Below, one piece after another: positions 1 through 19,928 of a stretch of DNA of 64,000 nucleotides. The notes below the pieces were generated by a model, which saw nothing but the letters and a program-made list of their open reading frames with translations, was not told the DNA's origin and did no database searches. The position numbers and the translations under genes were made by a program. The stretch lies in contig NZ_CP060711.1 in the NCBI RefSeq assembly GCF_014395425.1, positions 1,922,001 to 1,986,000 of the forward strand, read 5' to 3'. Numbering within the stretch: position 1 is the stretch's first letter; each line of letters starts with the position of its first letter. Source of the DNA: Thermomonas brevis (GTDB lineage: Bacteria; Pseudomonadota; Gammaproteobacteria; Xanthomonadales; Xanthomonadaceae).

Positions 1-1975
1 GCACCTGCGAATCCCACAGCCCGGTGCCGACGAACATCGCCGGATACGCCTTGGCTTCGAGGTTGTCGTAGGGCGAATAGGTGGCGATGTAGTCGTAGAA
101 CGTCTTCTGCTCCGGGTTGCCCCACTCGTCGTATTCGTTGGTGGTCAGCGGGATCGACGGGTCGAGCATCGTCGTCACCACGTCCACGAACGGCACCTGC
201 GACAGGATCACGCGGTACTTGTCCGGCGCCATGTTGGCGATCGCGCCCATCAGCAGGCCGCCGGCGCTGCCGCCGTGCGCGGCCACGCGGTCCGGCGCGG
301 CGTAGCCTTCCTTCACCAGGAAATCCGTCACGTCGATGAAGTCGGTGAAGGTGTTCTTCTTCTTCAGCAGCTTGCCGTCCTCGTACCACCTGCGGCCCAT
401 TTCCTGGCCGCCGCGGATGTGGGCGATGGCATAGGCCATGCCGCGATCCAGCAGGCTGACCGCGGTGACCGAGAAGCCCGGATCCATCGACGCGCCGTAG
501 CTGCCGTAGCCGTACTGCAGCAGCGCGGCCTTGCCGTTCTTCTCGAAGCCTTTCCTGTAGACGATGGACACCGGGATACTGGTGCCGTCGCGCGCGGTCG
601 CCCACAGGCGCTCGGTGACGTAGTTCGACGGATCAAAGCCGCCCAGCACCGGCTGGCGCTTGAGCAGGCGGCGCTCGCCGGTGGTCACGTTCAGCTCGTA
701 CACCGTGGCCGGCGTGGTCATCGAGGTGTAGCCGTAGCGCACCCAGTCGGTGTCCGGCTCGCTGTTGACGTCCAGGCCCATCGAATAGGCGGACTCGTCG
801 GCCTGGATGTACTCCTCGCCATCGGGCTTCAGCAGGCGCACGCGCTCCAGTCCGCCGGAGCGCTCGGCCACGGCGGTGAAGCCGTCGAACAGCTCGAAGC
901 CTTCGATGAACACGTCGTCGCGATGGGCGACCCAGTCCTTCCAGTCCTTGCGCGAAGTCGCGCCGTCGGCGGCGGTGACCAGCTTGAAGTTGGTCGCCGC
1001 ATCGGCATTCGTGCGGATCACCCAGCGCCCGCCGAAATGGTCGGCGTCGTACTCCACGTCGCGCGCGCGCTTCGCCAGCACGGTGAACTCGCGCGGATCG
1101 GCGGCCGGCGCGTAGCGCAGTTCGTCGGAAACCGTGCTGCTCACGCCGATGACGATGTAGCGCTCGTCGCGGGTGCGGTCGATGCCCATGTAGAAGCTGT
1201 CGTCGGCTTCCTCGTAGACGACCGGGTCGTCCTTCGGGTCGGTGCCGAGCACGTGCTTCTTCACCCGCACGGTGAGCAGGGTCTCCGGGTCGTTCTCGAC
1301 GTAGAACAGGGTCTTGTTGTCGTCCGCCCAGACCAGGTTGGGCGAGACGCCGGCGATGGTTTCCGGATACGCCTGCCCGGTGGCGAGGTCGCGGAAGCGG
1401 ATGGTGTACTGGCGGCGGCCGTTGTCGTCGTCGGCGTAGGCGAGCTGCCGGTTGTCCGGGCTGACCTCGAAGTCGCCCACGCTGTAGTAGTCCTTGCCCG
1501 CGGCCAGCGCGTTGACGTCCAGTAGCACGTCCTCGCCGGCGAAGTCGCCCGCCGCGTTGGCCTGCTGGATCGACAGCGCGTCGATGCCCGGGCCGTCCTT
1601 GCGGCGCGCGTGGATCGGGTAGTCCTTGCCGGTCTCGAAGCGCGAGTAGTACCAGTACCCGCGATCGCGGTAGGGCACGCTGGCGTCGTCCTGCTTGATG
1701 CGCGCCACGATCTCGTCGTAGAGCTTGTCCTGCACCGGTTTGGTCGGCGCCAGCACGGCGTCGGCGTAGGCGTTCTCGGCCATCAGGTAGCCGAGCATCG
1801 CGGCGTCCTTGCGGCTGTCGTCGCGCAGCCAGTAGTACTCGTCCTGGCGCTCGGCGCCGAACGGCGCCTTGACCACGTGCGTCTTCTTGTCCGCGTCGGG
1901 CGGCGTGGGCGGGGTCTGGGCGTTGGCGAGGCTGCTCATGAGGAAGAGACCGGCGATCAGGACGTGGGAGTTCAT
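1..1975 (-). CDS. ptrB: Oligopeptidase B-like S9A serine peptidase (3' end outside window)
   Basis: 658 residues are visible and the C-terminus, including the catalytic His, lies beyond the left edge. The N-terminus is a signal peptide (about 20 residues, ending LANAQ), so the enzyme is probably periplasmic. It then matches the S9A propeller start of oligopeptidase B (the DEYYWLRDDSR segment near residues 37-47). The nucleophile Ser is in GGSAGG at about residue 570. The family cleaves short peptides after basic residues. The start at 1975 was chosen because it gives the complete signal peptide; a second Met twelve codons on would truncate it. It lies downstream of, and in the same direction as, a second S9A gene, separated by hairpin-rich DNA, so the two are probably transcribed separately. 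OpdB rather than POP is inferred from the propeller N-terminus and GGSAGG; confidence in the family is high. Confidence 0.88.
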   Translation of the reverse strand, partial: MNSHVLIAGLFLMSSLANAQTPPTPPDADKKTHVVKAPFGAERQDEYYWLRDDSRKDAAMLGYLMAENAYADAVLAPTKPVQDKLYDEIVARIKQDDASVPYRDRGYWYYSRFETGKDYPIHARRKDGPGIDALSIQQANAAGDFAGEDVLLDVNALAAGKDYYSVGDFEVSPDNRQLAYADDDNGRRQYTIRFRDLATGQAYPETIAGVSPNLVWADDNKTLFYVENDPETLLTVRVKKHVLGTDPKDDPVVYEEADDSFYMGIDRTRDERYIVIGVSSTVSDELRYAPAADPREFTVLAKRARDVEYDADHFGGRWVIRTNADAATNFKLVTAADGATSRKDWKDWVAHRDDVFIEGFELFDGFTAVAERSGGLERVRLLKPDGEEYIQADESAYSMGLDVNSEPDTDWVRYGYTSMTTPATVYELNVTTGERRLLKRQPVLGGFDPSNYVTERLWATARDGTSIPVSIVYRKGFEKNGKAALLQYGYGSYGASMDPGFSVTAVSLLDRGMAYAIAHIRGGQEMGRRWYEDGKLLKKKNTFTDFIDVTDFLVKEGYAAPDRVAAHGGSAGGLLMGAIANMAPDKYRVILSQVPFVDVVTTMLDPSIPLTTNEYDEWGNPEQKTFYDYIATYSPYDNLEAKAYPAMFVGTGLWDSQV

Positions 1976-2040
1976 GGATGGGGCTCCGCGAAGCGGATTG
2001 CAATCGGTCCGTTCACCGCGGGTGACGGGAACGCTTTGGC

Positions 2041-2190
2041 TCCCTCCCTTTCGCACAGCGAAGGGGAGGGTTGGGGAGGGATGCTTCTGGTGCGCGTCAA
2101 CGCGAGAGCACCCCCTCCCGACCTCCCCCTTGCGCTGCGCGCAAAGGGAAGGAGAGCAGCTGCCCCTGCCTCCGCAGGGGAGGAGACGAA
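2041..2190. repeat. Intergenic hairpin cluster between the two S9 peptidase genes
   Basis: This gap holds three short inverted repeats rich in CCCTCCC/GGGAGGG. An 11-bp stem at 2044-2054/2058-2068 (one G-T mismatch, 3-nt loop) is followed by a stem around 2122-2151 centred on CTTGCGC/GCGCAAAG and by a GCCCCTGC/GCAGGGG hairpin at about 2161-2180. They probably act as the transcription terminator of the upstream prolyl oligopeptidase gene. They resemble the REP-like palindromes common between genes in xanthomonads. No long T-run follows, so a repeat element is as likely as a classical terminator. Confidence 0.55.
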
Positions 2191-2192
2191 CA

Positions 2193-4295
2193 TCACTTCG
2201 TCAGCTGGTTCCACAGGAAGGTGTAAGCCAGCGCGTTCATGTGCGCCGCCTGCGCGTTGTTGGCCGCGCCGCCGTGGCCGCCCTCGATGTTCTCGTAGTA
2301 GCGCACGTCCTTATCGGCGGCTTCCATCTTCGCCATCATCTTGCGCGCGTGGCCGGGATGGACGCGGTCGTCCTTGGTCGAGGTGGTGAACAGCGTCGCC
2401 GGATAGGTCTTGTTCGCGTCGAACAGGTGGTACGGCGAGAAGGTCTGGATGAACGACCAGTCGCTGGTGTCAGGGTCGCCGTACTCGGCCATCCACGAGG
2501 CGCCCGCCAGCAGGTGGCTGTAGCGCTTCATGTCCAGCAGCGGCACCTGCACCACGATCGCGCCGAACTTCTCCGGATATTGCGTGAGCATGTTGCCCAT
2601 CAGCAGGCCGCCGTTGCTGCCGCCCATGGTGCCCAAATGCTGCGGCGAGGTGATCTTGCGCGCCACTAGGTCGTCGGCGATCGCGGCGAAGTCCTCGTAG
2701 GCCTTGTGGCGGTTGGCCTTGAGCGCGGCCTGGTGCCAGCGCGGGCCGTATTCGCCGCCGCCGCGGATGTTGGCCAGCGCGTACACGCCGCCCTTTTCCA
2801 GCCAGGCCTTGCCGATGCTGCCGGAATAGGCCGGCGTCATCGACACCTCGAAGCCGCCGTAGCCGTACAGCAGGGTCGGCGCCTTGCCGTCGAACGCCAG
2901 GTCCTTCGGGCGGACCAGGAAGTACGGCACCTTGGTGCCGTCCTTGCTGGCGGCGAAGTGCTGCTCGATCACGTCCTTGCTGCCGTCGAAGAACACCGGG
3001 TTGGACTTCAGCACCTCGGGCTTTTGTCCGATCTCGGCGATCGACAGCGTGGTCGGGCTGAGGAAGTCGGTGGCGGTCAGCCACACCGCGTTGCTGTCGT
3101 CGGCATCCACGGCGCCCACGCCAATGGTGCCGATGGTCGACGCGCCGACGAAGGCCGACTTCGCCCAGCCGTCCTTGCCCGGCGTGAGCACGATCAGGCG
3201 GTTCTTGACGTCCTCCATCACGTTGAGGACGAGGTGATCCTTCGTCCACGTGGAGCCGGCCAGCGCGGCGTTGTCGGTCGGTTCGAACAGCGCGGTGAAG
3301 TCGCGCTTGCCGGCCATGAAGTCGTTGAAGTCCGTCGCGATCAGCGAGCCCGGCTTCCATGTCTTGCCGCCGGCTTCATACGGTTCGCGCAGCTCCAGCA
3401 CCAGCCAGTCCTTGTGCACGCCCTTCTGCGCGCTGTTCGGCGCGTCGACCTTGGTCAGGCTGCCGTCCGCGTTCCGCAGGTACAGCTCGTCGTTGTAGAA
3501 GGCGATGGTGCGGTTGACGAAGTCGCGCTGGTAGCCCGGCGTGTGGTCGCGGCCGGCGGCGATGTACATGTCGCCCGGCTTGCCTTCGTACACGGTCTTC
3601 GCCGACGCCAGCGGCGTGCCGCGCTTCCATTCCTTGACGATGTTGGGATAGCCGGAGCTGGTCAGCGTGCCGGGGCCGAAGTCGGTGAACACGTAGACCG
3701 TGTCCTCGTCGATCCACGACAGCCCGCCCTTGGCTTCCGGACGGAAGAAGCCGTCCTGCACGAACTGCTTGGTGGCCAGGTCGAACTCGCGGGTGACGTC
3801 GGCGTCGGAGCCGCCGGGCGACAGCGCGATCAGGCAGCGCTGGTACTTCGGCCGCAGGCAGTCGGCGCCGTGCCAGACCCACTTCGCGCCCTCGGCCTTG
3901 TTCAGCGCGTCGAGGTCGAGCGCGGTTTCCCACCTCGGTTCCGGCTTGCGGTATTCGGCCAGGGTGGTGCGGCGCCACAGGCCGCGTTCGTGCTGCTTGT
4001 CCTTCCAGAAGTTGTAGTAGTACTCGCCGATCTTCTCGACGCTGGGAATCTTGGCGTCGGAATCGAGGACCGCGCGGATCTGCGCCTCCAGCGTCTTGAA
4101 CGCCGGCGTGCCGGCGATCTCGGCTTCCGCCTTGGCGTTGCGCGCCTTCACCCAGTCCAGCGCCTTGTCGCCCTGCACGTCTTCCAGCCAGGCGTAGGGA
4201 TCGCCGTCGGGCGCGTTCTGCGCGGAGACGGCGCCGGTGAGGGCAAGGCCGGCAGCGACACTCATCGCTTGGCAGACAGTGGACAACTGGGACAT
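2193..4295 (-). CDS. Prolyl oligopeptidase family protein (S9A), exported
   Basis: A 700-residue serine peptidase cleaving proline-containing peptides, with a signal peptide (about residues 1-27, ending GAVSAQNA) indicating a periplasmic location. The N-terminal propeller begins with DGDPYAWLEDVQG, the usual POP start. The catalytic Ser is in GTMGGSNGGLLMG (about residue 560), the Asp in TKDDRVHPGHARKM and the His in EGGHGGAANN. Length fits the family (about 690-720). I use the ATG at 4295 rather than an in-frame GTG at 4331 because GGAG lies just upstream and the signal peptide then begins directly. It is a neighbour, not a close duplicate, of the oligopeptidase B gene. All catalytic residues are present. 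Confidence 0.93.
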   Translation of the reverse strand: MSQLSTVCQAMSVAAGLALTGAVSAQNAPDGDPYAWLEDVQGDKALDWVKARNAKAEAEIAGTPAFKTLEAQIRAVLDSDAKIPSVEKIGEYYYNFWKDKQHERGLWRRTTLAEYRKPEPRWETALDLDALNKAEGAKWVWHGADCLRPKYQRCLIALSPGGSDADVTREFDLATKQFVQDGFFRPEAKGGLSWIDEDTVYVFTDFGPGTLTSSGYPNIVKEWKRGTPLASAKTVYEGKPGDMYIAAGRDHTPGYQRDFVNRTIAFYNDELYLRNADGSLTKVDAPNSAQKGVHKDWLVLELREPYEAGGKTWKPGSLIATDFNDFMAGKRDFTALFEPTDNAALAGSTWTKDHLVLNVMEDVKNRLIVLTPGKDGWAKSAFVGASTIGTIGVGAVDADDSNAVWLTATDFLSPTTLSIAEIGQKPEVLKSNPVFFDGSKDVIEQHFAASKDGTKVPYFLVRPKDLAFDGKAPTLLYGYGGFEVSMTPAYSGSIGKAWLEKGGVYALANIRGGGEYGPRWHQAALKANRHKAYEDFAAIADDLVARKITSPQHLGTMGGSNGGLLMGNMLTQYPEKFGAIVVQVPLLDMKRYSHLLAGASWMAEYGDPDTSDWSFIQTFSPYHLFDANKTYPATLFTTSTKDDRVHPGHARKMMAKMEAADKDVRYYENIEGGHGGAANNAQAAHMNALAYTFLWNQLTK

Positions 4296-4370
4296 GGAGG
4301 CGCTCCGTGCTGCGGTCGGGGAAACCGCCACGCTAGCACGCCCCGCCGGCGCGGGAATGGCCCGGAAGCG

Positions 4371-4640
4371 CTAGGCGCGGCGGGCCATCCGCGGGTTCGC
4401 CGCGGGGTGGCGCATCCGCCGCCGGGCCTGCGCGCGCCGCCGCCGCGGCAGGCGCAGCGCGACCGTGGGCAGCGGGAAACGGCGCAGACTCCACCACGCC
4501 GCCAGCGGCATCCCCAGCAGCCACAGCGGCAGCCAGCCCAGCCACGCGCTGGTGCCGCGCGCGGCGGGAACCAGCAGCACGGCCAGCGCGCCGAGGATCA
4601 CCAGCTGGCGCAGGCAGGAATCGAGATCGCGGTGGGTCAT
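4371..4640 (-). CDS. Small arginine-rich membrane protein
   Basis: An 89-residue protein with two hydrophobic segments (about residues 12-26 and 31-46) followed by a strongly basic tail rich in Arg and Pro. It lies downstream of the C39 ABC exporter gene in the same direction with a 64-nt gap, and could be the last gene of the peptide export locus. No family was recognised. The start was set at the ATG preceded by GGAG about 7 nt upstream. An immunity or accessory role is possible from position only. It could equally be an unrelated xanthomonad hypothetical gene, because its base composition is high-GC like the core genome. Confidence 0.5.
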   Translation of the reverse strand: MTHRDLDSCLRQLVILGALAVLLVPAARGTSAWLGWLPLWLLGMPLAAWWSLRRFPLPTVALRLPRRRRAQARRRMRHPAANPRMARRA

Positions 4641-4704
4641 GGCAGCGCTCCGTTCAGGATGGCGCGCAGGTTGCTTTGCCGCCATCTCACGGGCTGCGAC
4701 GCGC

Positions 4705-6786
4705 CTAGGCCGCGGCCTGCACCGGCTCCGGCCTGACCTCCTGCACGATCTTCCCGCCGTGCATCACCAGCACGCGATCGGCACTGGCGATGGTTTCGGG
4801 CCGATGCGCCACGATCACCTTGGTCACCTCCAACTGCTTCACCGCCGCGTTCACCAGCTGCTCGTTGCCCACGTCCAGATGGCTGGTGGCTTCGTCCAGG
4901 AACAGCAGCTTCGGCTGCCGGTACAGCGCCCGCGCCAGGATCACCCGCTGCTTCTGCCCGCCGGACAGGCTGCTGCCCATGTCGCCGATCAGGCTGTGAT
5001 AGCCCATCGGCATCGCCGCGATCTCCCCGTGGATGGCCGCCATGCGTGCCGCCTGCTCCACCCGTGCCTGATCCATCTGCGGATCGAAAAAGCTGATGTT
5101 GTCGGCAATGCTGCCGCCGAACAGCTGGTCGTCCTGCATCACCGCGCCCACGATCCGGCGGATGTTCGCCGGTCCCGCCTTGTGCAGATCCTGCCCGCCG
5201 ATGCGGATCGTGCCTTCGGTCGGCTTGAGCAGGCCCAGCAGGAGCTTGACCAGCGTGGTCTTGCCGCAGCCGGACGCGCCGACGATCGCCACCGCTTCGC
5301 CCGGTTCGATGCGCAGGTTGCAGCCCTTCAACACCCACGGCTCGCCATCGGCGTAGCGGAAGCCCAGGTTCTCCACCTCGATGGAGGAGACTTCGGGCGC
5401 GGGCAGCTCCGGCCGCAGCTCCGCGTCCTCCGGCGGCGTCAGCACGATGTCGGCCAGGCGCTCGCCGTGCAGGCGCAGCATGCGGAACTCGATGCCCTTG
5501 TCGATCAGCGCCGACATGCGCTGCGCGAACTGGTCCTTGTAGGCGAGGAACGCGATCAGCATGCCGACCGAGAACACGTTGGACAGCGCCAGCAGCGCCC
5601 CGATCCAGATCACCGCGATGCGCTCGATCCCGAATACCAACTGGCTGGCGCTGGTGAAGCCCAGCCCCAACTGCGCGATGCGCACGTCCTGGTTGACGGT
5701 ATCCACCATCAGATTGTCGTAAGTGGAGCGGCGCAGCCCCTCCGCCCCGGCCACCTTGACGCTTTGCATGCCGCGCAGCGATTCCAGCAGATGGGTCTGC
5801 TGTTTCGCCGCCGCCACCAGTTGACGCTCGGTACCGTCGCGCAGCGGCCGGTAGGCCGCCAGGCGAATGCCGGCATACAGCGCCACCGCCAGCAGGGTAA
5901 CCAGCGCCAGCTTCCAGCTGTAGACCAGCATCAGGCCGAACGTCACCACCGCCATCAGGCCGTCGATCAGCGCCTCGACGAAGCTGGTGGTCAAGGTGCG
6001 CTGGATCGCCTGCACCGAGGCCATGCGCGAAGTGATATCGCCCAGATGGCGCTTTTCGAAGAAATCCAGCGGCAACCGCAGCGCGTGCGCGAACACGTTG
6101 CCCATCCATTGCAGCCCCAATCGGGACGACAGATACACCACCGACCAGCCGCGCAGCAGGCCGATGCCGATCTGCAGCAGCAGGGCCAGCCCGAAGCCCA
6201 GTCCCAATACCGTCAGCAGGTCCTTGTCGGCGGAGACCAGCACCTGGTCCACCACCCACTGCATGAAGAACGGGGCGAGCACCACGAACACCTGCAAGGC
6301 CACCGACAGCAGCAGGATCTGCCCCAGCGCCCGCCACAGGCCGGTCACGCGTCCGGTCAGCTGGCGCACCGACACCGATGGCGAGGCCTTGCGCGGCTTG
6401 AACTCATGGCCGGGCGCCAGTTCCAGCGCCACGCCGGTGAAGTGATCGGAGACCTCGGAAAAGGCGAGCGTCTTCTCGCCGATGGCCGGGTCGAGGATCG
6501 TCACCTTCGACCGTCTGACCTTGGCCAGCACCACGAAGTGGTTGAAATCCCAATGCAGGATGCAGGGCAGTTTGAGCTTGCCCAGGTCGTCCATGTCCAG
6601 CCGCAGCGGGCGGGTCTGGAAACCCAACTGCTGGGCGACATGGATCAGCTGGTTGAGCTTGGCGCCTTTGAGGGAGAGAGGGAAACGCTGGCGTAACTCG
6701 GCCAGAGATATCCGCAGGCCGTGGGCATCGGCCACCATCGCTAGCGAGGCGAGGCCGCATTCAGCGGCTTCGGATTGGAGGGTCAT
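4705..6786 (-). CDS. C39 peptidase-containing ABC exporter (CvaB-like)
   Basis: A 693-residue inner-membrane exporter that removes double-glycine leaders and pumps the cargo. The N-terminal C39 domain has its complete triad: Cys10 in SEAAECGLASL, His83 in NHFVV and Asp99 in ILDP. A six-helix ABC membrane domain follows (about residues 150-430), then an ATPase with Walker A GASGCGKTT, signature LSGGQKQR, Walker B LLFLDEATSHLD and the H-loop His in VAHRPE. Length matches the CvaB/PCAT class. The N-terminus is short, starting only nine residues before the catalytic Cys. The gene follows the CPBP protease by 33 nt. With the HlyD-type protein upstream it would form a type I export system; the TolC partner is not in this window. 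Its expected substrates are the two GG-leader peptides at 7710-8387. Confidence 0.93.
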   Translation of the reverse strand: MTLQSEAAECGLASLAMVADAHGLRISLAELRQRFPLSLKGAKLNQLIHVAQQLGFQTRPLRLDMDDLGKLKLPCILHWDFNHFVVLAKVRRSKVTILDPAIGEKTLAFSEVSDHFTGVALELAPGHEFKPRKASPSVSVRQLTGRVTGLWRALGQILLLSVALQVFVVLAPFFMQWVVDQVLVSADKDLLTVLGLGFGLALLLQIGIGLLRGWSVVYLSSRLGLQWMGNVFAHALRLPLDFFEKRHLGDITSRMASVQAIQRTLTTSFVEALIDGLMAVVTFGLMLVYSWKLALVTLLAVALYAGIRLAAYRPLRDGTERQLVAAAKQQTHLLESLRGMQSVKVAGAEGLRRSTYDNLMVDTVNQDVRIAQLGLGFTSASQLVFGIERIAVIWIGALLALSNVFSVGMLIAFLAYKDQFAQRMSALIDKGIEFRMLRLHGERLADIVLTPPEDAELRPELPAPEVSSIEVENLGFRYADGEPWVLKGCNLRIEPGEAVAIVGASGCGKTTLVKLLLGLLKPTEGTIRIGGQDLHKAGPANIRRIVGAVMQDDQLFGGSIADNISFFDPQMDQARVEQAARMAAIHGEIAAMPMGYHSLIGDMGSSLSGGQKQRVILARALYRQPKLLFLDEATSHLDVGNEQLVNAAVKQLEVTKVIVAHRPETIASADRVLVMHGGKIVQEVRPEPVQAAA

Positions 6787-6819
6787 GCAAGCAGCATCAT
6801 AAATTTACAGAATAGGGCT

Positions 6820-7647
6820 TCAGGCGCGACCACAATTTAACTGCCTGAAGTTGTTTTTAATCATAAAAAATAAAGCAGGAGTTGATATCAGCAGCATCAT
6901 AATTTCTGGAATCCAGCTTGATAACTCCCTCAAATCAGTCGTAGATTTCATCCAGTGAAAATTAAATATATACTGAAGAATAAATGCGGAGGCGTTGAAG
7001 ATCGCATGAGTCAATGCATTCACCCAGATCGAACGATACCTAATGTAAAGAACACACAAGACTATCCCAAAAACAAGCGTACTAAGAAAATACGGCTTCT
7101 GCATGTGAAATGCAGCAAAAAGCAGTGAGTTCGCAATGACGGCCCTCATTGCCCCCCATCTGGCGGTCATTTCTCTAAGAAATAAGCCTCTGAATAAGTA
7201 CTCTTCAACGACAGGAGCAGCTATAAGCTGAGCAAATCCTATAGTTACAAATCCGAAAAATGTTTCGTGAAGATCGTATGGCGCCACATGGAATCCCCAG
7301 TATTCATGGGCGAAATCTGGATAATGCTGTGCAGCAAGATATACCTCTATAAAGTTTTCTCCATAAGAAAACATAAGAAGCAGCGCGGCGCAAATTGCCG
7401 CTACTAGGATTGATGCTGCGTTTAATCCTGCTCCTGAAATGGCCTTAAACGAAACTCCAGCTGCTCGCGCAACATGTCTTGCAAATAAAAACATTGCGCA
7501 ATATACAATTACAAGCCTGCCATTGGTCGAAATAGTCTTGTCAATAGGGAAAAGGCGGGCTATATATGATGCCGCAGTGCCTACAACTATCATGGATACG
7601 GCGATACATGAAAACAAATCAATGAATCGCATTCTGCCATTTCTCAT
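6820..7647 (-). CDS. CPBP family intramembrane metalloprotease
   Basis: A 275-residue, mostly hydrophobic protein with about eight membrane segments. The CPBP (Abi/CaaX) signature is complete: EE at 148-149 with Arg153 (EEYLFRG), His181 in LLFAAFHM and His214 in NALTHAIFNA. In Gram-positive class II bacteriocin loci such proteases serve as self-immunity proteins or process peptides. Here it sits directly between two GG-leader peptide genes and the C39 exporter, which supports such a role by context. A GGAGG ribosome site lies 4 nt before the ATG. The coding sequence is far richer in A+T than the exporter and the M16 gene, a sign of separate acquisition. Which of the two roles it plays cannot be read from sequence. 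Confidence 0.88.
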   Translation of the reverse strand: MRNGRMRFIDLFSCIAVSMIVVGTAASYIARLFPIDKTISTNGRLVIVYCAMFLFARHVARAAGVSFKAISGAGLNAASILVAAICAALLLMFSYGENFIEVYLAAQHYPDFAHEYWGFHVAPYDLHETFFGFVTIGFAQLIAAPVVEEYLFRGLFLREMTARWGAMRAVIANSLLFAAFHMQKPYFLSTLVFGIVLCVLYIRYRSIWVNALTHAIFNASAFILQYIFNFHWMKSTTDLRELSSWIPEIMMLLISTPALFFMIKNNFRQLNCGRA

Positions 7648-7664
7648 GCGCCCTCCAAGAAAAA

Positions 7665-7696
7665 CCCAATCCCGCCTATCGTCAAGCGGGACTGGG
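7665..7696 (-). terminator. Rho-independent terminator after peptide precursor B
   Basis: An 11-bp stem (7665-7675 with 7686-7696, one G-T pair, 10-nt loop) is followed on the minus strand by TTTTTCTT. It lies between the stop of peptide B (7710) and the CPBP start (7647). It would end most transcripts after the peptide genes and let a fraction read through into the CPBP and exporter genes, a common way to give more precursor than transporter. Confidence 0.75.
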
Positions 7697-7709
7697 ATAA
7701 ATGCGTGAC

Positions 7710-7871
7710 TTAGTGCGTTAAATCATAAATGGCACTACCGAGCCATGCTCCAATCTTTTCGCAGAGCTCCGCGGCATCATTAATCCTTTTTCCAAGTTCC
7801 GATTCGGGATTGTCGATGGGTTTGACTCCGCCAGCCGTCAATTTAATTTCACTTACTCCAAGTTCGCGCAT
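7710..7871 (-). CDS. Double-glycine leader peptide precursor B (bacteriocin/microcin-like)
   Basis: A 53-residue precursor too short for routine ORF calling. The leader MRELGVSEIKLTAGG has the MREL..xEI....GG pattern of class II bacteriocin and microcin V leaders. The mature part (about 38 residues) starts VKPIDNPESELG, carries a single Cys37 and a GAWLG (GxxxG) motif at 41-45, and ends AIYDLTH. It aligns without gaps to precursor A over all 53 residues. GAGGA lies about 10 nt before the ATG. The Gly pair is one residue further along than in A, so cleavage is either after AG (position 14) or GG (position 15). GxxxG motifs are typical of two-peptide bacteriocins, where they mediate helix pairing. 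Antimicrobial activity is inferred. Confidence 0.8.
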   Translation of the reverse strand: MRELGVSEIKLTAGGVKPIDNPESELGKRINDAAELCEKIGAWLGSAIYDLTH

Positions 7872-8225
7872 TTTCTGTGGTCCTCGGATAGGGTTTGATA
7901 ATTTAAATGGTTAAAATTGAGTTTCGTATATTAATTTGTGTCCAGCGATCTTGATAAGTCCTTGGGTGATCAAGCCTAGGATTTATTTCCGTAAGCCGGA
8001 AGTCATTTGAGCTGGATTCGGGTCGCTTCGCTTTAGAATGAAATCAACCGGACGGATAAAAGACACAAAAACAAAACTCATTTGCCGCAATTGGCGCAAC
8101 GCTGACAAGCCCATCCTGAACTTGTCAGCACACCCCGAGCCCAGCACGCAGATCCGTCACTTGTATGATTGGTCTGCGATCGATCATCCATGATCGGCAT
8201 ATGGCGCGGACTTAATTATATAAAG
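7872..8225. other. A+T-rich gap between the two peptide precursor genes
   Basis: This 354-bp gap holds no ORF with a plausible start and ribosome site. Visible structure: a perfect 9-bp inverted repeat GCTGACAAG/CTTGTCAGC (8101-8109, 8121-8129) with an 11-nt loop and no T-run on either side, and a perfect 7-bp repeat CGATCAT-CC-ATGATCG at 8181-8196. The region upstream of precursor B (about 7880-7990) is A+T-rich and could contain its own promoter, but no convincing -35/-10 pair was identified. Confidence 0.5.
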
Positions 8226-8387
8226 TCAATGCGTCCAATCGTAGATTTTACCGCCAAGCCAACTTCCAATCTTGTCGCACAGCTGCATAACATCATTAAT
8301 GGTTTTCCCAACTTCTGATTCGGCATTATCCACCGGCTTGAGGGCGCCGCCAATGTGGCTGATCTCACAAGCATCTAGTTCACGCAT
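8226..8387 (-). CDS. Double-glycine leader peptide precursor A (bacteriocin/microcin-like)
   Basis: A 53-residue precursor. The open frame extends 19 codons further upstream, but the ATG at 8387 is preceded by GGAGATGAAAAA and opens exactly on the leader MRELDACEISHIGG. Cleavage after GG14 by a C39 peptidase gives a 39-residue product beginning ALKPVDNAESEVG, with one Cys37 and the GxxxG motif GSWLG (41-45) before the end KIYDWTH. Shared with precursor B are the leader, KPxDNxESExGKxIND, LCxKIGxWLG and the YDxTH end. The mature part is acidic at its start and more hydrophobic/amphipathic after residue 30. The gene is 189 bp downstream of the M16 peptidase stop. Function as a secreted bacteriocin or signalling peptide is inferred from leader and export genes. 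Confidence 0.82.
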   Translation of the reverse strand: MRELDACEISHIGGALKPVDNAESEVGKTINDVMQLCDKIGSWLGGKIYDWTH

Positions 8388-8540
8388 TTTTTCATCTCCA
8401 TTGGAATAACGCAGTTCCTCTGCGCTGAAGGGAAGGGGATACACCCCAACAATTTCATAGCTCTTGAGTCAACCAACTTGCTCAATGAACGAATATGAGG
8501 ATTTGAGTGCCCGCTTGGTCAGCCGTGCGCTTTTTCATCT

Positions 8541-8563
8541 ACAGGTAGCTTGCGACTACCTGT
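8541..8563. terminator. Hairpin after the M16 peptidase gene
   Basis: A perfect 8-bp stem ACAGGTAG/CTACCTGT with a 7-nt loop lies 13 bp beyond the stop of the M16 gene. On the minus strand no strong T-run follows, so termination would be weak. It separates the adaptor/M16 genes from the peptide genes, which suggests the peptides may have their own promoter within 8388-8540. Confidence 0.5.
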
Positions 8564-8576
8564 TTGCCTTCTCCTA

Positions 8577-11324
<2,748 letters not shown>

Positions 11325-11413
11325 AGAGCTTCCTTGGGTAGATGCGCCTCGAAAGGCGCTGAGAATTCGGTTGCAAACCCTGTAGTGATTTGCAGTCGGG
11401 TTATTCATGGGAT

Positions 11414-12679
11414 TCAGTTGTTGCCGACCTTCCCCTGTAACGAATACAAAGGCTCGAACACCCATTCGATCAGCCGGCGCTTGTCCCCCAGCACATCGGC
11501 TTCCAGCAGCATTCCCGGTTTCAGCAGCTCGGCCTTGCCGTAGGCGGTGACGGTCTGCCGCGCCAACGCCACGGTGATGCGATAGAACGGTTCGCCCTGC
11601 TGTGCATTGCCGATCAGCGTGCCGAGTTCACCGGAGCTCAAGGCGCTTCGGCTGATCCGGGTCACCGTGCCCTGCTGATGGCCGAACTTCTGGTACGGGT
11701 ACGCTTGGTAACGCAGCAGCACCTTGTCGCCGGGTTCGATGAAACCGATCGCGCGGCTGGGCACCAGCAGTTCCGCTTCCAGCATTCCGTTGCCCGGAAG
11801 CAGGCTGAGCAAGGGCTGGCCTGCCTGCACGGCCTGTCCGGGCTTGACCAGCTGCGTGGCGATGACGCCGGTCACCGGCGCGCTGACTGCCAGGGCGCCG
11901 CGTGCTTCCGTTTCCACTTGCTCCTGTTCCAGCGCTGCCAGATCGCGCTGGAAGTCGGCATTGCTGGCGAGGCGTTGCCCGGGCAGCTCCTGCCGGGCCT
12001 GCTGGAGCTGGGCGAGGCTGCGGCGTGCGGTAATGGCTTGGCGCTGCATGGCTTGCACGTCGCTGACGGCCTGCAGCCATGCGGCCTCCTGTTGCTTCAC
12101 CTGCAGGGCGCTGACGTATTTGTCCGCTTGCAGCTGGCGCAGGCGCTGCAGGGTTTCGTCGGCAATCCATACCTGCCCCTGCCGGGTGGCGATTTCCTGT
12201 TCCAGCTGCGCCAGTTCGCGTCGGGCGGCGTCCAGCTGCGCCAGCAAGCCGCCGGCCTGTGCATTCAGCAGCTGGCTCTGCGCGCGGTGCGCGTCCTGCA
12301 AGCCTTGTTGGCGCCGCGCCAGCCGCTGGGCCATGGCAGCGGCGGTGTCGCCCTCGTTCACGGTGGCGCGCGGCAGGCTGACTACCGCCAGGGATTGCCC
12401 GGCACGGACTCGCCTGCCTTCCGCGCTGTCCAGCTCCGTTACCACGCCGGTGGCGGGTGCCAGGACGGTGGCCAAGCCCCTGGTGGGCACCAGTTGCCCG
12501 ACCACGGTGGAGCGGCGCGTGTAGCTGCCCAGCGTCAGGAACAGCCCGATCGCCAATGCCGCACCAGCTGCGAAGGCGGTCATGGCCCATAGCGGCAGGG
12601 GCTGGGCCAGGGAAATGCTCCCCAGCCAGCTACCGCGCTTGGCTTCCAGCGCTTCCCTGCGAAAAAGTGATTCCGACAT
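11414..12679 (-). CDS. HlyD/CvaA-type periplasmic adaptor of a peptide exporter
   Basis: A 421-residue membrane fusion protein. A single N-terminal membrane helix (about residues 29-50) is followed by a lipoyl half-motif (LAPATGVVTELDSAEGRRV), a long coiled-coil hairpin (about 110-260, Gln/Ala/Leu rich), the second lipoyl half (VSAPVTGVIATQLVKPGQAV) and a beta-barrel end. Length fits CvaA, the partner of CvaB in microcin V export. It would link the C39 ABC exporter to an outer-membrane TolC. The start at 12679 was chosen because the open frame before it has no ribosome site, although the site for the chosen start is also weak. It is divergent from the XRE regulator and probably the first gene of the locus. 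Confidence 0.88.
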   Translation of the reverse strand: MSESLFRREALEAKRGSWLGSISLAQPLPLWAMTAFAAGAALAIGLFLTLGSYTRRSTVVGQLVPTRGLATVLAPATGVVTELDSAEGRRVRAGQSLAVVSLPRATVNEGDTAAAMAQRLARRQQGLQDAHRAQSQLLNAQAGGLLAQLDAARRELAQLEQEIATRQGQVWIADETLQRLRQLQADKYVSALQVKQQEAAWLQAVSDVQAMQRQAITARRSLAQLQQARQELPGQRLASNADFQRDLAALEQEQVETEARGALAVSAPVTGVIATQLVKPGQAVQAGQPLLSLLPGNGMLEAELLVPSRAIGFIEPGDKVLLRYQAYPYQKFGHQQGTVTRISRSALSSGELGTLIGNAQQGEPFYRITVALARQTVTAYGKAELLKPGMLLEADVLGDKRRLIEWVFEPLYSLQGKVGNN

Positions 12680-12983
12680 TCCAAATTTGCATAACGTCCC
12701 CGAGCGTTTATTTGGACTGATCCGGGGATGTCCGCACAACCCTCGGGAAGGGGGAAATCCGCCTCGATTTGCCCTTTTGCTGCATCGCAGCAATCATTGT
12801 CGTCAATGATTTAGACGAATCATGCAAGCAATACTGTACGTCTCTTCGTCAATATTGCTTGCGTCCGCATTTCCGACAGCTGGCGGTCAAAGGAGTAAAG
12901 CTTCGATACTGATTGCGCTATGCTATGCGGCCTTGGTGCAGCGGTCTTGTTTCACGCCGGCTGCATCGCTGGGGTTTCATGCA
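12680..12983. promoter_or_regulatory. Divergent promoter region between HlyD-type gene and XRE regulator
   Basis: A 304-bp intergenic stretch carrying two perfect dyads. The first is AATCATTG-TCGT-CAATGATT (12792-12811, 8-bp arms). The second is GCAAGCAATA...TATTGCTTGC (12824-12833 and 12853-12862, 10-bp arms, 19-nt spacer). Both lie upstream of the XRE gene (start 12984) and of the HlyD-type gene (start 12679), so either could be an operator for the divergent XRE repressor. TTGACG on the minus strand at 12801-12806 overlaps the first dyad and could be a -35 element; no clear -10 was seen. Confidence 0.55.
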
Positions 12984-13370
12984 ATGACGACATTGGCCGG
13001 ACGAATCCGCAAGGCGCGCCTGCGCGCGGGTATATCGCAACAGCAATTGGCAGAACGGTTGAAGGTCACCCGCGGCGCGGTGGCCAACTGGGAAGGTGCC
13101 AACGGGGTGGTTCCCGCAACCGAGCGGCTCCAGCGCATCGCGCAGGAAACCGGGGTGTCATTCGAATGGTTGGCCACGGGGCGCGGCGCCTGCAAATACG
13201 AGCCGCTGCTGGACGACATTCCCGGCGTGATCGGCATGGAGCTTGTCAGCGACCATCTGGAGCTCCGGCTGCTGCATGCCTTGCGCGCGGTGCCGCGGCG
13301 CCAGCAGGGGCGGATCATCAAAACCGTCGAGGCGCATGCCGGGATTTACCTGGCGGATAATCTGGAATAA
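12984..13370 (+). CDS. XRE-family transcriptional regulator
   Basis: A 128-residue protein with a Cro/C1-type helix-turn-helix at residues 4-60. The recognition helices lie around GISQQQLAERLKVTRGAVAN, followed by WEG and the FEWLATG segment typical of this family. The C-terminal half (about 65-128) is helical and probably serves for dimerisation. The open frame begins earlier (12822), but the ATG at 12984 starts exactly on the HTH fold and the upstream stretch contains the inverted repeat, so it is promoter. It is divergent from the peptide-export locus and is the best candidate for its regulator; this is inferred from position. Confidence 0.85.
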   Translation: MTTLAGRIRKARLRAGISQQQLAERLKVTRGAVANWEGANGVVPATERLQRIAQETGVSFEWLATGRGACKYEPLLDDIPGVIGMELVSDHLELRLLHALRAVPRRQQGRIIKTVEAHAGIYLADNLE

Positions 13371-13433
13371 TTCCGTATTCGCGCACGATGCGTGTTCGTG
13401 GATTATTCGAAAATCAAATTTCCGGTCGGGAAT

Positions 13434-14330
13434 TCAATACCCCGCCGCGTCCAACGCCTTCTTCGCCTCGCTGCGGCCGATCTCGATCAGCTCCGCGCCG
13501 CGCCAGAACTCGTAGAACTGGCAGGCGTCGCGGGGAATGCGGATCAGCAGGTCCGGCGGTTCCAGCGCCATCTGCACGCGGGCGATGCGTTCCTGCATGG
13601 TGTCCAGCGCGCGCGACATCACTTCCATCAGGCCGAAGCGGTGGGTCGGGCGGGCGGTCTCTTCACTGTTGCCGAAATGCTGTTCCATCCAGCGTCCCAG
13701 CGGGTTGGTCGGGGACGCCTCGGCGACGGCGTCGACCACCCGCACCGGATCGTCGCTGCGCTGCGGCGTGCTGCCGTGGATGTCCACCGCCACCACCCGG
13801 TGCGGGCCGGCCAGCCGGGTGGCGGTGATCGGCAGCGGTGCGAGCAGGCCGCCGTCGACCAGCTCCATGCCGTCGAGGGTGAGCGGGGTGAAGATGCCGG
13901 GAATCGCGAACGAGGCGCGCAGGGCGTTCCACAGGTCGCCGTGGCGCAGCCAGACTTCGCGCTGGCGCAGCAGGTCCACCGCGACCGCGGTGAAGTCGAT
14001 CGGCAGGTCTTCGATGCGCGGTTCGCCGATGACGTCGCGCAGGGTGCGCACCAGCCGGTTGCCGGTGAACATGGCCGGGCGGCCCCAGCCGGGGTCGAGC
14101 AGGCGCAGCATCTCGTTGCGGCCGGTGCGCAGCATCCAGTCGCGCAGTTCGCCCAGCTTGCCGGCGGCGAACGCGCCGCCGACCAGCGCGCCGCAAGAGG
14201 TGCCGGCCACGGCCTCGATGCGCAGGCCGCGCTCCTGCAGGACTTCGATCACGCCGATCTGGGCCAGTCCGCGCGCGCCGCCGGCGCCCAGCGCCAGCAC
14301 CACCGACGCATCGCCCGCGCCGGCGCGCAT
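13434..14330 (-). CDS. Patatin-like phospholipase (RssA/YchK type)
   Basis: A 298-residue patatin domain protein. It has the oxyanion-hole glycine motif GAGGARG near residue 14, the nucleophile Ser in GTSCG (about residue 45) and the dyad Asp in VDGGLLAPLP (about 165). These are the residues needed for lipid acyl hydrolase activity. Length fits the bacterial RssA-like class. The ATG overlaps the stop of the WYL regulator gene (TGATG, one base shared), so translation is coupled. It is convergent with the XRE gene. Substrate unknown; probably membrane phospholipid or lysophospholipid. Confidence 0.88.
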   Translation of the reverse strand: MRAGAGDASVVLALGAGGARGLAQIGVIEVLQERGLRIEAVAGTSCGALVGGAFAAGKLGELRDWMLRTGRNEMLRLLDPGWGRPAMFTGNRLVRTLRDVIGEPRIEDLPIDFTAVAVDLLRQREVWLRHGDLWNALRASFAIPGIFTPLTLDGMELVDGGLLAPLPITATRLAGPHRVVAVDIHGSTPQRSDDPVRVVDAVAEASPTNPLGRWMEQHFGNSEETARPTHRFGLMEVMSRALDTMQERIARVQMALEPPDLLIRIPRDACQFYEFWRGAELIEIGRSEAKKALDAAGY

Positions 14331-15301
14331 CAACCGTCCCCGTAGTTGGACAGCGCCAGCTGCAGGTGCGCGCGCAGCTGCTCGCGCAGCGCCTTCGGTT
14401 CGACGATCTCGGCGTCGGCGCCGTAGTGCAGCACGTCCATCAGCAGTTCGCGCGGCACCGAGTACGGCACCTTCAGCTCGTAGCGGCCGTCGGGCAGGAA
14501 GCGGCCCTGCTGCTGCGAATGCCAGTGCTCGTCGGCCACCCAGCGCGCGGCCTTGGGGCTGAAGCGGATCGTCGCCCAGCCCTTGGGCGCGCCGGAGAAG
14601 ATGCCGTAGCTGCCGGCGAGATGCGCATTGAGGTCGTCCTCGGCCACATCGCGCGCGCCGCCGTCGACGAAGCGCGCGCCGGCGATGCGGTCGATGGAGA
14701 AGCTGCGCAGGCCCTCGCGGTCTTCGTCCCAGGCGTCCAGGTACCAATTGTCGCGGTAGTGGGTCAGGCGCTGCGGGCTGACCGTGCGGCGGGTCTTCTC
14801 GTCGGTGGAGCGGGCGCGGTAGTCGAAGGCCAGCTTGCGCCGCTCCAGCACGCTGGAGGCGACGATGCGGAACGCGTTCTCGTCCATCCGGCGGATCCGG
14901 TGCGGGATGACGCGCACCCGTTCCACCGGCCAGCGCTTGCCGCCGGAGTGGGCGTCGAGCAGCTTCTCCACCCGCTGCTGCAGCGGCGCCAGCGCGGCCG
15001 ACAGCATTCCGCCGCTGCTGCGCGCCAGCAGCTGCTGCGCGGCCAGCAGGGCGTGCAGTTCTTCCGAATTGAGCCACAGGCCGGGCAGTTCGAAGCGTTC
15101 GGCCTCGTCCTTGTCGTAGTGGAAGCCGGCCTCGCCGTCGCCGACCACCGGCGCCATCAGCGCGTCGCGCAGGAAGGCGATGTCGCGGTAGACGGTGGCG
15201 CGCGAGCAGCCCAGTTCGTCCTGCAGCCGGGCCACCGTCACCGGCCGGCGCGCGGCTTGCAGGTGGCGGTGCAGGGCGATGATGCGTTCGTAGCGGTCCA
15301 T
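14330..15301 (-). CDS. WYL-domain transcriptional regulator (YafY family)
   Basis: A 323-residue regulator. The N-terminal winged HTH (residues 1-60, with LQDELGCSRATVYRDIAFLR) is followed by a WYL domain containing the YRDNWYLDAWDEDREGLRSF core (about 195-215) and a C-terminal WCX region. Such proteins sense small ligands or nucleic acids and act as activators or repressors. It is translationally coupled to the patatin-like gene downstream. The start is the first ATG of the frame and opens directly on the HTH. Confidence 0.88.
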   Translation of the reverse strand: MDRYERIIALHRHLQAARRPVTVARLQDELGCSRATVYRDIAFLRDALMAPVVGDGEAGFHYDKDEAERFELPGLWLNSEELHALLAAQQLLARSSGGMLSAALAPLQQRVEKLLDAHSGGKRWPVERVRVIPHRIRRMDENAFRIVASSVLERRKLAFDYRARSTDEKTRRTVSPQRLTHYRDNWYLDAWDEDREGLRSFSIDRIAGARFVDGGARDVAEDDLNAHLAGSYGIFSGAPKGWATIRFSPKAARWVADEHWHSQQQGRFLPDGRYELKVPYSVPRELLMDVLHYGADAEIVEPKALREQLRAHLQLALSNYGDG

Positions 15302-15383
15302 GCCCCGATTATGCGGCAGCCGTTCACGGTCCGTGGGCGGCGGGCGCGGTTAGAATGCGGGCGGATTCCCGTTCCGGACGACC

Positions 15384-16016
15384 ATGCTGCCGCTGCTGTG
15401 GCTGGCGTTTTCCGCGCCGCCGACCGCCATCGCCCTACCGCCCCTGCCGGTGTTGCAGCCGGAGGTGGTGCAGCGCCTGATCGATCCGCCACGCTGCCTG
15501 AAGGCGCGCTGCGTGAACGGCGAGTGGTCGGTGGATGCGATGGCGGACATCCCCTCCGGCCAGCGCCGCCTGGATGCCGACGACCTGCCCGGCAGCGGCG
15601 GCCGGCTGCGCCTGCCCGACGAGCGCCGCGACTGGATGAAGGCGCAGGGCAGCAACGCCCGCGTCGGCATGCAGTACGGCGTGCAGGCGATGAAGACCCG
15701 CGACACCAGCGTGCGCGTGTCGGTGGACACCGGCTACCGCCTGCAGGGCTACGCCGACGACGGCACCGCCGGCACCGGCCCGATCCTGCGCGGGCAGGTG
15801 GAATGGAACCAGGCGCTGGGCAAGCGCGCGCGGCTGTCGCAGACCACCCGCATCGAAACCGGCCAGCACGGCGCCTACCTGCGCAACAGCCTGCTGGTGA
15901 ACGTGCAGCTGCAGCCGATGCTGACGCTGAGTTCCGGCGTGGAGATGCGCCGCGACAGCGACCTGGTCGGCCGCAACCAGACCGACGCGACGCTGAGGCT
16001 GAAATATGCGTTCTGA
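15384..16016 (+). CDS. Putative exported outer-membrane beta-barrel protein
   Basis: A 210-residue protein with a short signal peptide (residues 1-18). A Cys pair (RCLKARC, about 38-44) in the N-terminal part is followed by a region with alternating polar/hydrophobic strands and an aromatic C-terminus (LRLKYAF), which is the outer-membrane barrel insertion signal. No family was recognised. It is divergent from the WYL gene (82 bp) and convergent with the methyltransferase. The predicted outer-membrane location is inferred from strand pattern and terminal Phe. Confidence 0.6.
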   Translation: MLPLLWLAFSAPPTAIALPPLPVLQPEVVQRLIDPPRCLKARCVNGEWSVDAMADIPSGQRRLDADDLPGSGGRLRLPDERRDWMKAQGSNARVGMQYGVQAMKTRDTSVRVSVDTGYRLQGYADDGTAGTGPILRGQVEWNQALGKRARLSQTTRIETGQHGAYLRNSLLVNVQLQPMLTLSSGVEMRRDSDLVGRNQTDATLRLKYAF

Positions 16017-16078
16017 AATGGATGCGGCAGCTCGCGGAACCGTTCGGCGCGAACGGAAGACTTTCACTCATGCCAGAA

Positions 16079-17395: not shown

Positions 17396-17430
17396 GGGGA
17401 AAGTATAGGCGGCGGTCTGGCGAAAGTCGA

Positions 17431-17444
17431 TCGGAAAATTCCGA
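17431..17444. promoter_or_regulatory. Inverted repeat in the methyltransferase/vsr divergent promoter
   Basis: TCGGAA-AA-TTCCGA, a perfect 6-bp dyad, lies midway between the divergent methyltransferase (start 17395) and vsr (start 17513). It is a candidate operator for timing of modification and restriction, possibly bound by the methyltransferase itself. No C-protein gene is present. Confidence 0.35.
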
Positions 17445-17512
17445 GATTGAAGCGGAACCTTCTGACATAAGATGCCGCTTGTCGGTCTCATGCGGCGCGA
17501 ATCGGGGTGAGG

Positions 17513-17917: not shown

Positions 17918-17950
17918 TGTTGTGGATGGGTGGGCGATAGAGGAGGCGTT

Positions 17951-18760: not shown

Positions 18761-18848
18761 TCGGATTAGGCGGTACTACCCAATCAAGAGCGATTGCGTC
18801 GTCGTCGCGAGGGAGTTCCGTACCCCCTGAACCATGTCGCCGGAACCT

Positions 18849-19760: not shown

Positions 19761-19805
19761 GCGCGCATTATCGCTTTTACCAGTGGTGCGCGCGGGATGG
19801 TTGTT

Positions 19806-19918: not shown

Positions 19919-19928
19919 TCGCAGTGAA

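What the first reader, a model, noticed from the sequence alone, without database searches (positions are those of the whole stretch)
7710..8387. Twin 53-residue double-glycine peptides: a likely new two-component bacteriocin or signalling pair
Two short genes encode precursors that align end to end without gaps: same MREL..xEI leader, a Gly pair at 13-15, single Cys37, a shared LCxKIGxWLG block containing GxxxG (41-45) and a YDxTH C-terminus. A C39 exporter and HlyD-type adaptor are encoded in the same locus. GG leaders plus GxxxG are hallmarks of class IIb bacteriocins, but this mature sequence is not one I recognise. The precise mature start of B is ambiguous because its Gly pair is shifted by one.
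Basis: partly seen in the sequence, partly recalled or inferred. Interest (0 to 1): 0.88.

Follow-up and report, generated by a model that had tools for sequence, protein, structure and literature searches.

The report
Imported twin bacteriocin-like peptide cassette
Two small sister genes make peptides that this bacterium very probably cuts and exports, most likely to harm competing bacteria; they belong to a rare peptide family without a library model and sit in a resident export locus as an imported block.

Summary
In detail: two intact 53-codon genes (8226-8387 and 7710-7871, minus strand) encode gapless, 60%-identical precursors with double-glycine leaders, beside HlyD and C39-exporter genes. 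They evolve under protein constraint (dN/dS 0.13). They belong to a family with 57 further protein clusters, mostly metagenomic, that none of the three libraries searched models. The pair plus a CPBP membrane protein form a low-GC block (42-48%, against 66% for the exporter genes) between the M16-peptidase and C39 genes, where three relatives have only 44-72 bp. Many relatives' exporters carry quite different double-glycine cargo (29 of 42 loci), some weakly matching bacteriocin families. Best reading: an imported class II microcin-like bacteriocin cassette, with CPBP as candidate immunity. An obligate two-component toxin is not supported: the sisters look like paralogues, and Thalassotalea marina has one copy. 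The family register puts pepA cleavage after Gly-Ala, so both mature peptides would have 38 residues. The mature family is hydrophilic and almost never a glycine zipper. Killing, immunity and the need for two peptides are untested.

The parts
8226..8387 (-). pepA, 53-residue precursor; leader residues 1-15 (8387-8343), mature residues 16-53 (8342-8229) LKPVDN...YDWTH
   Evidence: cleavage site inferred from the family register
7710..7871 (-). pepB, 53-residue precursor; leader residues 1-15 (7871-7827), mature residues 16-53 (7826-7713) VKPIDN...YDLTH
   Evidence: cleavage site inferred from the family register
7665..7696 (-). terminator-like hairpin (14 pairs, then a T run) directly after pepB, before the CPBP gene
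   Evidence: pattern scan; 5 terminator-like sites found in 6800-8700 against a mean of 1.9 in shuffles
6820..7647 (-). CPBP (Rce1-like) intramembrane protein, 275 aa, EExxxR and His motifs present; candidate immunity or processing protein
   Evidence: 28% identical to the T. marina gene in the same position
6785..8568 (.). inserted low-GC cassette (pepA, pepB, CPBP): block without counterpart in the three M16-bearing relatives
4705..6786 (-). C39-peptidase ABC exporter, 693 aa, GC 66%
8577..11321 (-). M16 (insulinase-type) metallopeptidase with signal-peptide-like start and HLLEH; nearest rows in the tree are the M16 genes beside the same exporter in three relatives
11414..12679 (-). HlyD-type adaptor (likely start 12679; the open frame reaches 12793)
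12984..13370 (+). divergent XRE-type regulator gene, recurrent beside this exporter
   Evidence: scanned from 12990; homologue within the fetched stretch in 25 of 48 loci

Best explanation
A class II microcin-like bacteriocin cassette (two paralogous double-glycine peptides plus a CPBP membrane protein) has been inserted, probably by horizontal transfer, into a resident HlyD/M16/C39 exporter locus. Inferred working: both precursors are cut after residue 15 (Gly-Ala in pepA, Gly-Gly in pepB) by the C39 domain and exported through C39-HlyD-TolC as 38-residue peptides. Each mature peptide is largely one amphipathic helix ending in the conserved GxWLGxxIYDxTH module. They act on related competitors, presumably at the envelope, with the module for target recognition or helix packing. 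The CPBP protein most likely gives the producer immunity. Shown by sequence: the genes, the leader register, the constraint, the family, the low-GC insertion and the changing cargo. Inferred: cleavage, export, killing, immunity and partnership.
For: Leader register. C39 domain (Peptidase_C39 E=1.7e-35) with Cys, His and Asp in blocks conserved with T. marina. HlyD gene in the locus and a TolC-type gene over cut-off elsewhere in the genome. Purifying selection. T. marina has HlyD - peptide - CPBP - C39 in the same order. Relatives' exporters carry other double-glycine cargo: 29 of 42 loci, 39 ORFs in 60,471 bp, against 0 on the reverse strand of the same gaps and 1 in 349,656 strand-bases upstream, both strands counted. 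Of those 39 peptides, 7 match Bacteriocin_IIc, 3 MccV and 5 cerein-7B models at E<=0.01 (best E-values 2e-4, 1.1e-4, 2e-5; a peptide may match more than one). Cassette GC 42-48% against 66% for the exporter genes. All three relatives found with this M16 beside the exporter have only 44-72 bp where the cassette lies.
Against: No family model matches the peptides. No activity is known to me for any family member; the only hint is that UniRef names the T. marina copy 'Bacteriocin'. The mature peptides are hydrophilic (median GRAVY -0.31 against 0.67 for the cargo of the same exporter family) and mostly negative (52 of 59 rows, median -3 against -1). The mature part is conserved between distant bacteria, more than I would expect of a fast-changing toxin. 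The CPBP protein (275 aa) is larger than confirmed microcin immunity proteins (51-216 aa, PMC9746304, passages seen). Thirteen of 42 exporter loci show no cargo by the motif, and in nine further fetched loci HlyD and C39 lie under 300 bp apart with no room for cargo. AlphaFold models are of low confidence (mean pLDDT 65 and 62).
Confidence: 0.62

Rival explanations
1. Obligate two-component (class IIb-type) bacteriocin: pepA and pepB pair through GxxxG and are inactive singly.
For: Two neighbouring genes, each with G41xxxG45. Ten of 42 exporter loci of relatives hold two double-glycine ORFs in the same interval. In one Alteromonadales-type locus both members of an adjacent pair end in the same C-terminal module (L115).
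Against: 60% identity end to end suggests duplication, while class IIb partners usually differ (recalled). T. marina has one copy. No class IIb model matches. Whether the metagenomic members are paired could not be seen.
Confidence: 0.17
2. Exported signalling peptides (pheromone or host-directed), matured by C39 and perhaps by CPBP.
For: Hydrophilic, mostly negative, conserved mature part. CPBP proteins process pheromones in Gram-positives (MroQ, recalled; below-cut-off model match). RaxX of Xanthomonas, exported by a C39/HlyD pair, is a signal (recalled).
Against: No sensor kinase gene recognised by eye in the ORF list of window 1-20000; a LytTR-like response-regulator frame lies at 19929-20675, some 11.5 kb from pepA. 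XRE homologues also stand beside exporters with other cargo. Insertion and changing cargo are typical of toxins (inference). CPBP genes accompany quite different cargo elsewhere.
Confidence: 0.13
3. Contact-dependent surface toxins of the Cdz kind, held on the producer's surface.
For: Two small double-glycine-type peptides with a type I exporter; the cdz region of Caulobacter also has a CaaX protease gene, which was dispensable (PMC5380434, passages seen).
Against: Cdz proteins are hydrophobic glycine zippers; only 1 of 59 family rows has GxxxGxxxG and median hydropathy is negative.
Confidence: 0.04
4. Chance or decayed frames.
For: The frames are absent from the two same-genus relatives that keep the exporter.
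Against: dN/dS 0.13; 57 further homologous clusters; Shine-Dalgarno-like stretches; T. marina synteny.
Confidence: 0.01

Closest known systems
Class II microcins (MccV/CvaC type with C39 exporter CvaB and adaptor CvaA)
   Same: Double-glycine (GG or GA) leader, C39 exporter and HlyD-type adaptor in the locus, TolC-type gene elsewhere, small peptide, membrane protein beside it
   Different: No match to the microcin models searched; hydrophilic helix-like mature part; two paralogous precursors; CPBP protein in place of a small immunity protein
Class IIb two-peptide bacteriocins (lactococcin G, plantaricins)
   Same: Two neighbouring double-glycine peptides with GxxxG; CAAX/Abi genes occur in such loci (PMC10059821, passages seen)
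   Different: The two here are 60% identical; no model match; single copy in T. marina
Cdz system of Caulobacter crescentus
   Same: Proteobacterial pair of small exported peptides with a type I exporter, CaaX protease gene nearby, horizontal spread (PMC5380434, passages seen)
   Different: No glycine zipper
Moraxella McbABCI bacteriocin
   Same: Adaptor, exporter, double-glycine peptide and immunity gene in one locus (PMC2761928, passages seen)
   Different: 74-residue immunity protein instead of CPBP; its peptide was not compared here
Single-peptide locus of Thalassotalea marina
   Same: Same peptide family, same order HlyD - peptide - CPBP - C39
   Different: One peptide, no M16 gene between

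Membership tests
Class II microcin-like double-glycine bacteriocin | Leader ending in GG or GA in the canonical register | tested here: met
   Residue 14 Gly in 55 of 59, residue 15 Gly/Ala/Ser in 54 of 59; 'GG or GA' from PMC9746304 (passages seen)
Class II microcin-like double-glycine bacteriocin | C39 exporter with catalytic triad | tested here: met
   Peptidase_C39 E=1.7e-35; AECGLASLAM, NHFVVL and DPA blocks conserved with T. marina; not aligned to CvaB itself, residues assigned from recall
Class II microcin-like double-glycine bacteriocin | HlyD-type adaptor and TolC | tested here: met
   adaptor; TolC-type gene over cut-off at G000:C1:1390722
Class II microcin-like double-glycine bacteriocin | Cognate immunity protein | tested here: inconclusive
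   CPBP gene inside the same inserted block; no functional test possible
Class II microcin-like double-glycine bacteriocin | Antibacterial activity | not testable with these tools
   needs culture work
Class IIb two-peptide bacteriocin | GxxxG motif in both peptides | tested here: met
   G41xxxG45 in both
Class IIb two-peptide bacteriocin | Match to a class IIb family model | tested here: not met
   0 NCBIfam and 0 Pfam families at E<=1 for either peptide
Class IIb two-peptide bacteriocin | Two different peptides, both needed | tested here: inconclusive
   paralogues 60% identical; one copy in T. marina; activity not testable
Cdz contact-dependent glycine-zipper proteins | Extended hydrophobic GxxxGxxxG zipper | tested here: not met
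   1 of 59 family rows; median hydropathy -0.31
Graspetide (as in the G016 locus) | ATP-grasp maturase beside the precursor | tested here: not met
   none of the six locus proteins scanned has an ATP-grasp family; present in L015
RaxX-type sulfated signal peptide | Tyrosine sulfotransferase gene in the locus | not tested
   none recognised by eye among the ORFs; no family search made

The most novel reading that the evidence does not exclude
The family defines a new group of Gram-negative exported peptides built around a portable C-terminal module, G-x2-[LIFV]-G-x3-[YF]-[DEN]-x2-[HN]. The module is joined either to a hydrophilic amphipathic helix (this family, 57 of 59 rows) or to Gly-rich, probably membrane-inserting parts (double-glycine peptides of Alteromonadales-type genomes, including both members of an adjacent pair; and a similar tail on a protein of Alteromonas alba that UniRef names 'Bacteriocin'). 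On this reading the module is a common target- or partner-binding tail that has moved between otherwise unrelated bacteriocins, and pepA and pepB are two variants using it.
Probability: 0.25. Interest if true: 0.68.

Novelty: new member of a known kind. Interest (0 to 1): 0.5.

Why it matters
It adds a peptide family without a library model (57 clusters besides the window's two, from several groups of proteobacteria) to the poorly known bacteriocins of Gram-negatives outside the Enterobacteriaceae. It also shows an exporter locus of this bacterial family working, in many genomes, as a slot with changing cargo: two-peptide bacteriocin-like pairs, a graspetide-type cassette, and this imported pair. 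The clean insertion gives a natural unit for a direct test of killing and of CPBP immunity in laboratory strains. The shared C-terminal module makes a testable prediction about a common receptor or partner.

Tried and rejected
Non-coding or chance frames: rejected. Cys37 as a conserved disulfide link: not supported, since Cys37 is confined to the two window peptides. CPBP as a specific partner of this peptide family: weakened, because CPBP-motif genes also sit beside other cargo in exporter loci of Alteromonadales-type genomes (4 of 13 small loci with an HlyD homologue, T. marina being one of the 4; one more genome, G1309). In the window's own family, 0 of 52 HlyD-C39 intervals held a CPBP-motif ORF (some intervals are too short to hold one), and tblastn with both CPBP proteins at E<=1e-3 hit none of the 60 fetched loci. 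Weak same-genus matches to pepA (seven genomes besides the own one) lie in frames of 589-642 aa or, in one case, run over a stop. The A2 search in the class gave three further weak matches; one, looked at, is a leader-only match to another double-glycine peptide (L109). Plasmids, viral contigs and Rfam over window 4000-14000 gave nothing; the phage collection was not searched. The family search in the neighbouring family of the order gave 0 of 167, which the tool itself calls uninformative. Solved structures: one match at E=0.7, taken as chance. AlphaFold gave a low-confidence helix at residues 25-52 both times, so no fold search was made. M16 as a core gene caught by accident: weakened, since the window M16 is nearer to the exporter-linked M16 of three relatives (71-75% by BLASTP) than to M16 genes elsewhere in same-genus genomes (60-64%); support in the tree is modest.

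Limits of the survey: of the exporter matches in 137 genomes I fetched the 60 next-best loci after the window's own, besides G016 and G009. One search uses 42 of the 60; two of the 42 (L075, L091) have no HlyD in view because the contig ends. Of the 18 left out, 8 had no HlyD in the fetched stretch, 9 had under 300 bp between HlyD and C39, and 1 had over 5000 bp. The leader motif was written after looking at the cargo. The bacteriocin-family matches are weak and were not held against the curated cut-offs. The C-terminal-module matches outside the family were found by searching with the family profile, so their frequency is biased upward; the set not so chosen (A3) has 0 of 39.

Full report
What is there. 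The window is part of a 3.44-Mb genome in one contig (G000). On the minus strand the gene order is HlyD adaptor, M16 peptidase, pepA, pepB, CPBP membrane protein, C39 exporter; a divergent XRE-type regulator gene precedes HlyD. pepA (8226-8387) and pepB (7710-7871) each encode 53 residues, have a Shine-Dalgarno-like stretch, and align gaplessly with 32 of 53 identities. They differ at about 24 of 34 synonymous sites but only about 29 of 125 nonsynonymous sites (dN/dS 0.13), so both are maintained as proteins. A 14-pair terminator-like hairpin follows pepB directly, as expected if the peptides are transcribed more than the genes behind them (inference).

A peptide family. No Pfam, NCBIfam or PHROG family matches (one PHROG hit at E=0.25). 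Three rounds of profile search listed 4, 21 and 62 proteins, the window's own among them. I aligned 59 rows: the two window peptides and 57 hits with E up to 5e-8 (A7); P0021 and P0060-P0063, weaker, were left out. The rows are not all independent: P0032/P0034 and P0042/P0045 are the same over the family part. Named sources are Thalassotalea marina, Aureimonas altamirensis, Duganella sp. BJB1802 and a Rhodanobacteraceae MAG, which by recalled taxonomy span alpha-, beta- and gammaproteobacteria; most others are metagenomic. The consensus is a leader MRELxxxEIxxVSGG followed by a core ending ...PIxNPQSExGKxINDxAGxLNxFGSWLGGxIYDxTH. In genome surveys it is rare: convincing matches in the own genome only among 25 same-genus, 395 family, 369 class and 398 phylum genomes. 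In an Alteromonadales-type family 55 of 196 genomes had matches at E<=0.05, but only G1268, whose peptide is that of T. marina, was strong (1.5e-18). The first look of these searches limits their sensitivity.

Cleavage site. All 59 rows have Leu, Ile, Met or Phe at position 4; residue 14 is Gly in 55, and residue 15 is Gly, Ala or Ser in 54. pepA reads Gly13-Gly14-Ala15, so the family register puts cleavage after Gly-Ala. GA sites are accepted for class II microcins (PMC9746304, passages seen). pepB reads Gly14-Gly15. Both mature peptides would then have 38 residues.

An inserted cassette. pepA, pepB and CPBP have 42-48% GC; C39, M16 and HlyD have 66% and the window 68%. DNA similarity to three relatives that carry M16 beside the exporter (L049, L077, L078) runs to window 8577 or 8569, stops, and resumes at 6784 or 6777. 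In those relatives the two sides are 44-72 bp apart, in the window 1,791-1,792 bp. The window thus holds an insertion of about 1.7 kb, or the relatives a deletion; the low GC favours insertion. T. marina has HlyD - one peptide of the family - CPBP - C39 in the same order, and its CPBP is 28% identical.

The exporter as a slot for changing cargo. In 25 same-genus genomes, two others keep the exporter. G016 carries a 46-residue double-glycine peptide, a protein with a weak SPASM-maturase match (TIGR04193, 33.9 bits, cut-off 175) and an ATP-grasp protein (RimK over Pfam's cut-off; NCBIfam maturase models below theirs). G009 carries two Gly-rich double-glycine peptides and a 114-residue protein. 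Across the family 137 of 390 genomes have the exporter at E<=1e-180. Of 60 loci fetched, 42 gave an interval of 300-5000 bp, and 29 of these hold at least one strict double-glycine ORF (10 hold two). That is 39 ORFs in 60,471 bp, against none on the reverse strand of the same intervals and one in 349,656 strand-bases upstream. Against this reading, 13 of the 42 had none by this motif, and in nine more loci HlyD and C39 lie too close for any cargo between them, so the slot is not always filled. Of the 39 peptides, 7 match Bacteriocin_IIc, 3 MccV and 5 cerein 7B at E<=0.01, all weakly; at least 24 match none of these three.

How it probably works. The C39 domain trims the leader while the peptide is exported through HlyD and TolC (gene evidence; the process is established for this exporter kind and inferred here). 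The mature part has an amphipathic segment (18-residue hydrophobic moment reached by 3 of 1000 shuffles for pepA and 22 of 1000 for pepB), and AlphaFold draws one helix over residues 25-52, at low confidence. I think antibacterial action on relatives is most likely (0.62 for the whole explanation), with CPBP as immunity. Against it stand the hydrophilic composition (median GRAVY -0.31, against 0.67 for the exporter family's cargo), the mostly negative charge (52 of 59 rows; median -3 against -1), the strong conservation, and the lack of any tested family member known to me.

Two components or one? The two peptides are paralogues of one family, and T. marina has one copy. That favours two variants of one toxin over an obligate pair. 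Pairs of double-glycine ORFs are nevertheless not rare in this exporter family (10 of 42 loci). Duplicated single-action and two-peptide systems cannot be told apart from sequence.

The C-terminal module. The pattern G-x2-[LIFV]-G-x3-[YF]-[DEN]-x2-[HN] is in 57 of 59 family rows and 0 of 39 cargo peptides of the window's own exporter family. It also stands at or near the end of Gly-rich double-glycine peptides of Alteromonadales-type genomes, including both members of an adjacent pair (L115). A protein of Alteromonas alba that UniRef calls 'Bacteriocin' ends DDFGSWLGGEIYDWFNS. The search that found these used the family profile, so this is suggestive, not counted evidence. That the family of G532 is Alteromonadales-like is my inference from its holding G1268 with the T. 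marina peptide and HlyD.

Comparison with the known. It works like a class II microcin locus as far as parts go. It is not shown to be a class IIb pair, and it fails the glycine-zipper feature of Cdz proteins (PMC5380434, passages seen). CaaX proteases are said to be often present in bacteriocin clusters, and the one beside cdz proved dispensable (same paper); an Abi gene gave immunity in Latilactobacillus sakei (PMC10059821, passages seen). I also looked at passages of PMC2761928 and PMC11798529. RaxX and MroQ are recalled, not looked up. No paper of the library holds the strings GSWLGG, SWLGGKIYD, SWLGGEIYD or SWLGSAIYD; sequences printed in figures or supplements would be missed. Of the other paper searches I saw listings only, apart from the five papers named.

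Noticed in passing
L015:5901-13052 (G016): Same exporter with a 46-residue double-glycine peptide, a weakly SPASM-like protein and an ATP-grasp protein: a graspetide-type cassette in the slot, plus a 463-residue protein without family match.
   Followed up: partly
L016:5006-5916 (G009): Two Gly-rich double-glycine peptides and a 114-residue protein (candidate immunity) in the same slot; no Pfam or NCBIfam match at E<=0.01.
   Followed up: partly
window 8577-11321; L049, L077, L078: M16 metallopeptidase with a signal-peptide-like start recurs between HlyD and C39; these copies are nearer to each other than to M16 genes elsewhere in same-genus genomes. In L077 and L078 no strict double-glycine ORF lies between HlyD and C39.
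   Followed up: partly
L115:1504-1840, L128, L139, L116-L118, L146: Alteromonadales-type double-glycine peptides, some in adjacent pairs, with C-terminal tails like GxxLGxxxYDxxH of the finding's family.
   Followed up: partly
L153:6183-7616 (G1306): Array of ten short double-glycine precursors, several nearly alike (MKELN..EVQGI.GG...), behind a C39/HlyD pair.
   Followed up: no
L152 (G1163): Three HlyD and two C39 homologues within 19 kb, with four different double-glycine peptides sharing one MRELNVNEIEQVNGG leader.
   Followed up: no
window 16079-18760: Frames that read by eye as a DNA cytosine methyltransferase, a Vsr-like nuclease and a restriction-type protein; not searched.
   Followed up: no
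window 2193-4331: Prolyl-oligopeptidase-like frame directly downstream of the C39 exporter (by eye); not tested for a link with the peptides.
   Followed up: no
window 18849-20675: Frames that read by eye as HemC and an AlgR-like LytTR response regulator, some 11 kb from the peptides; looks like an ordinary chromosomal pair, not searched.
   Followed up: no
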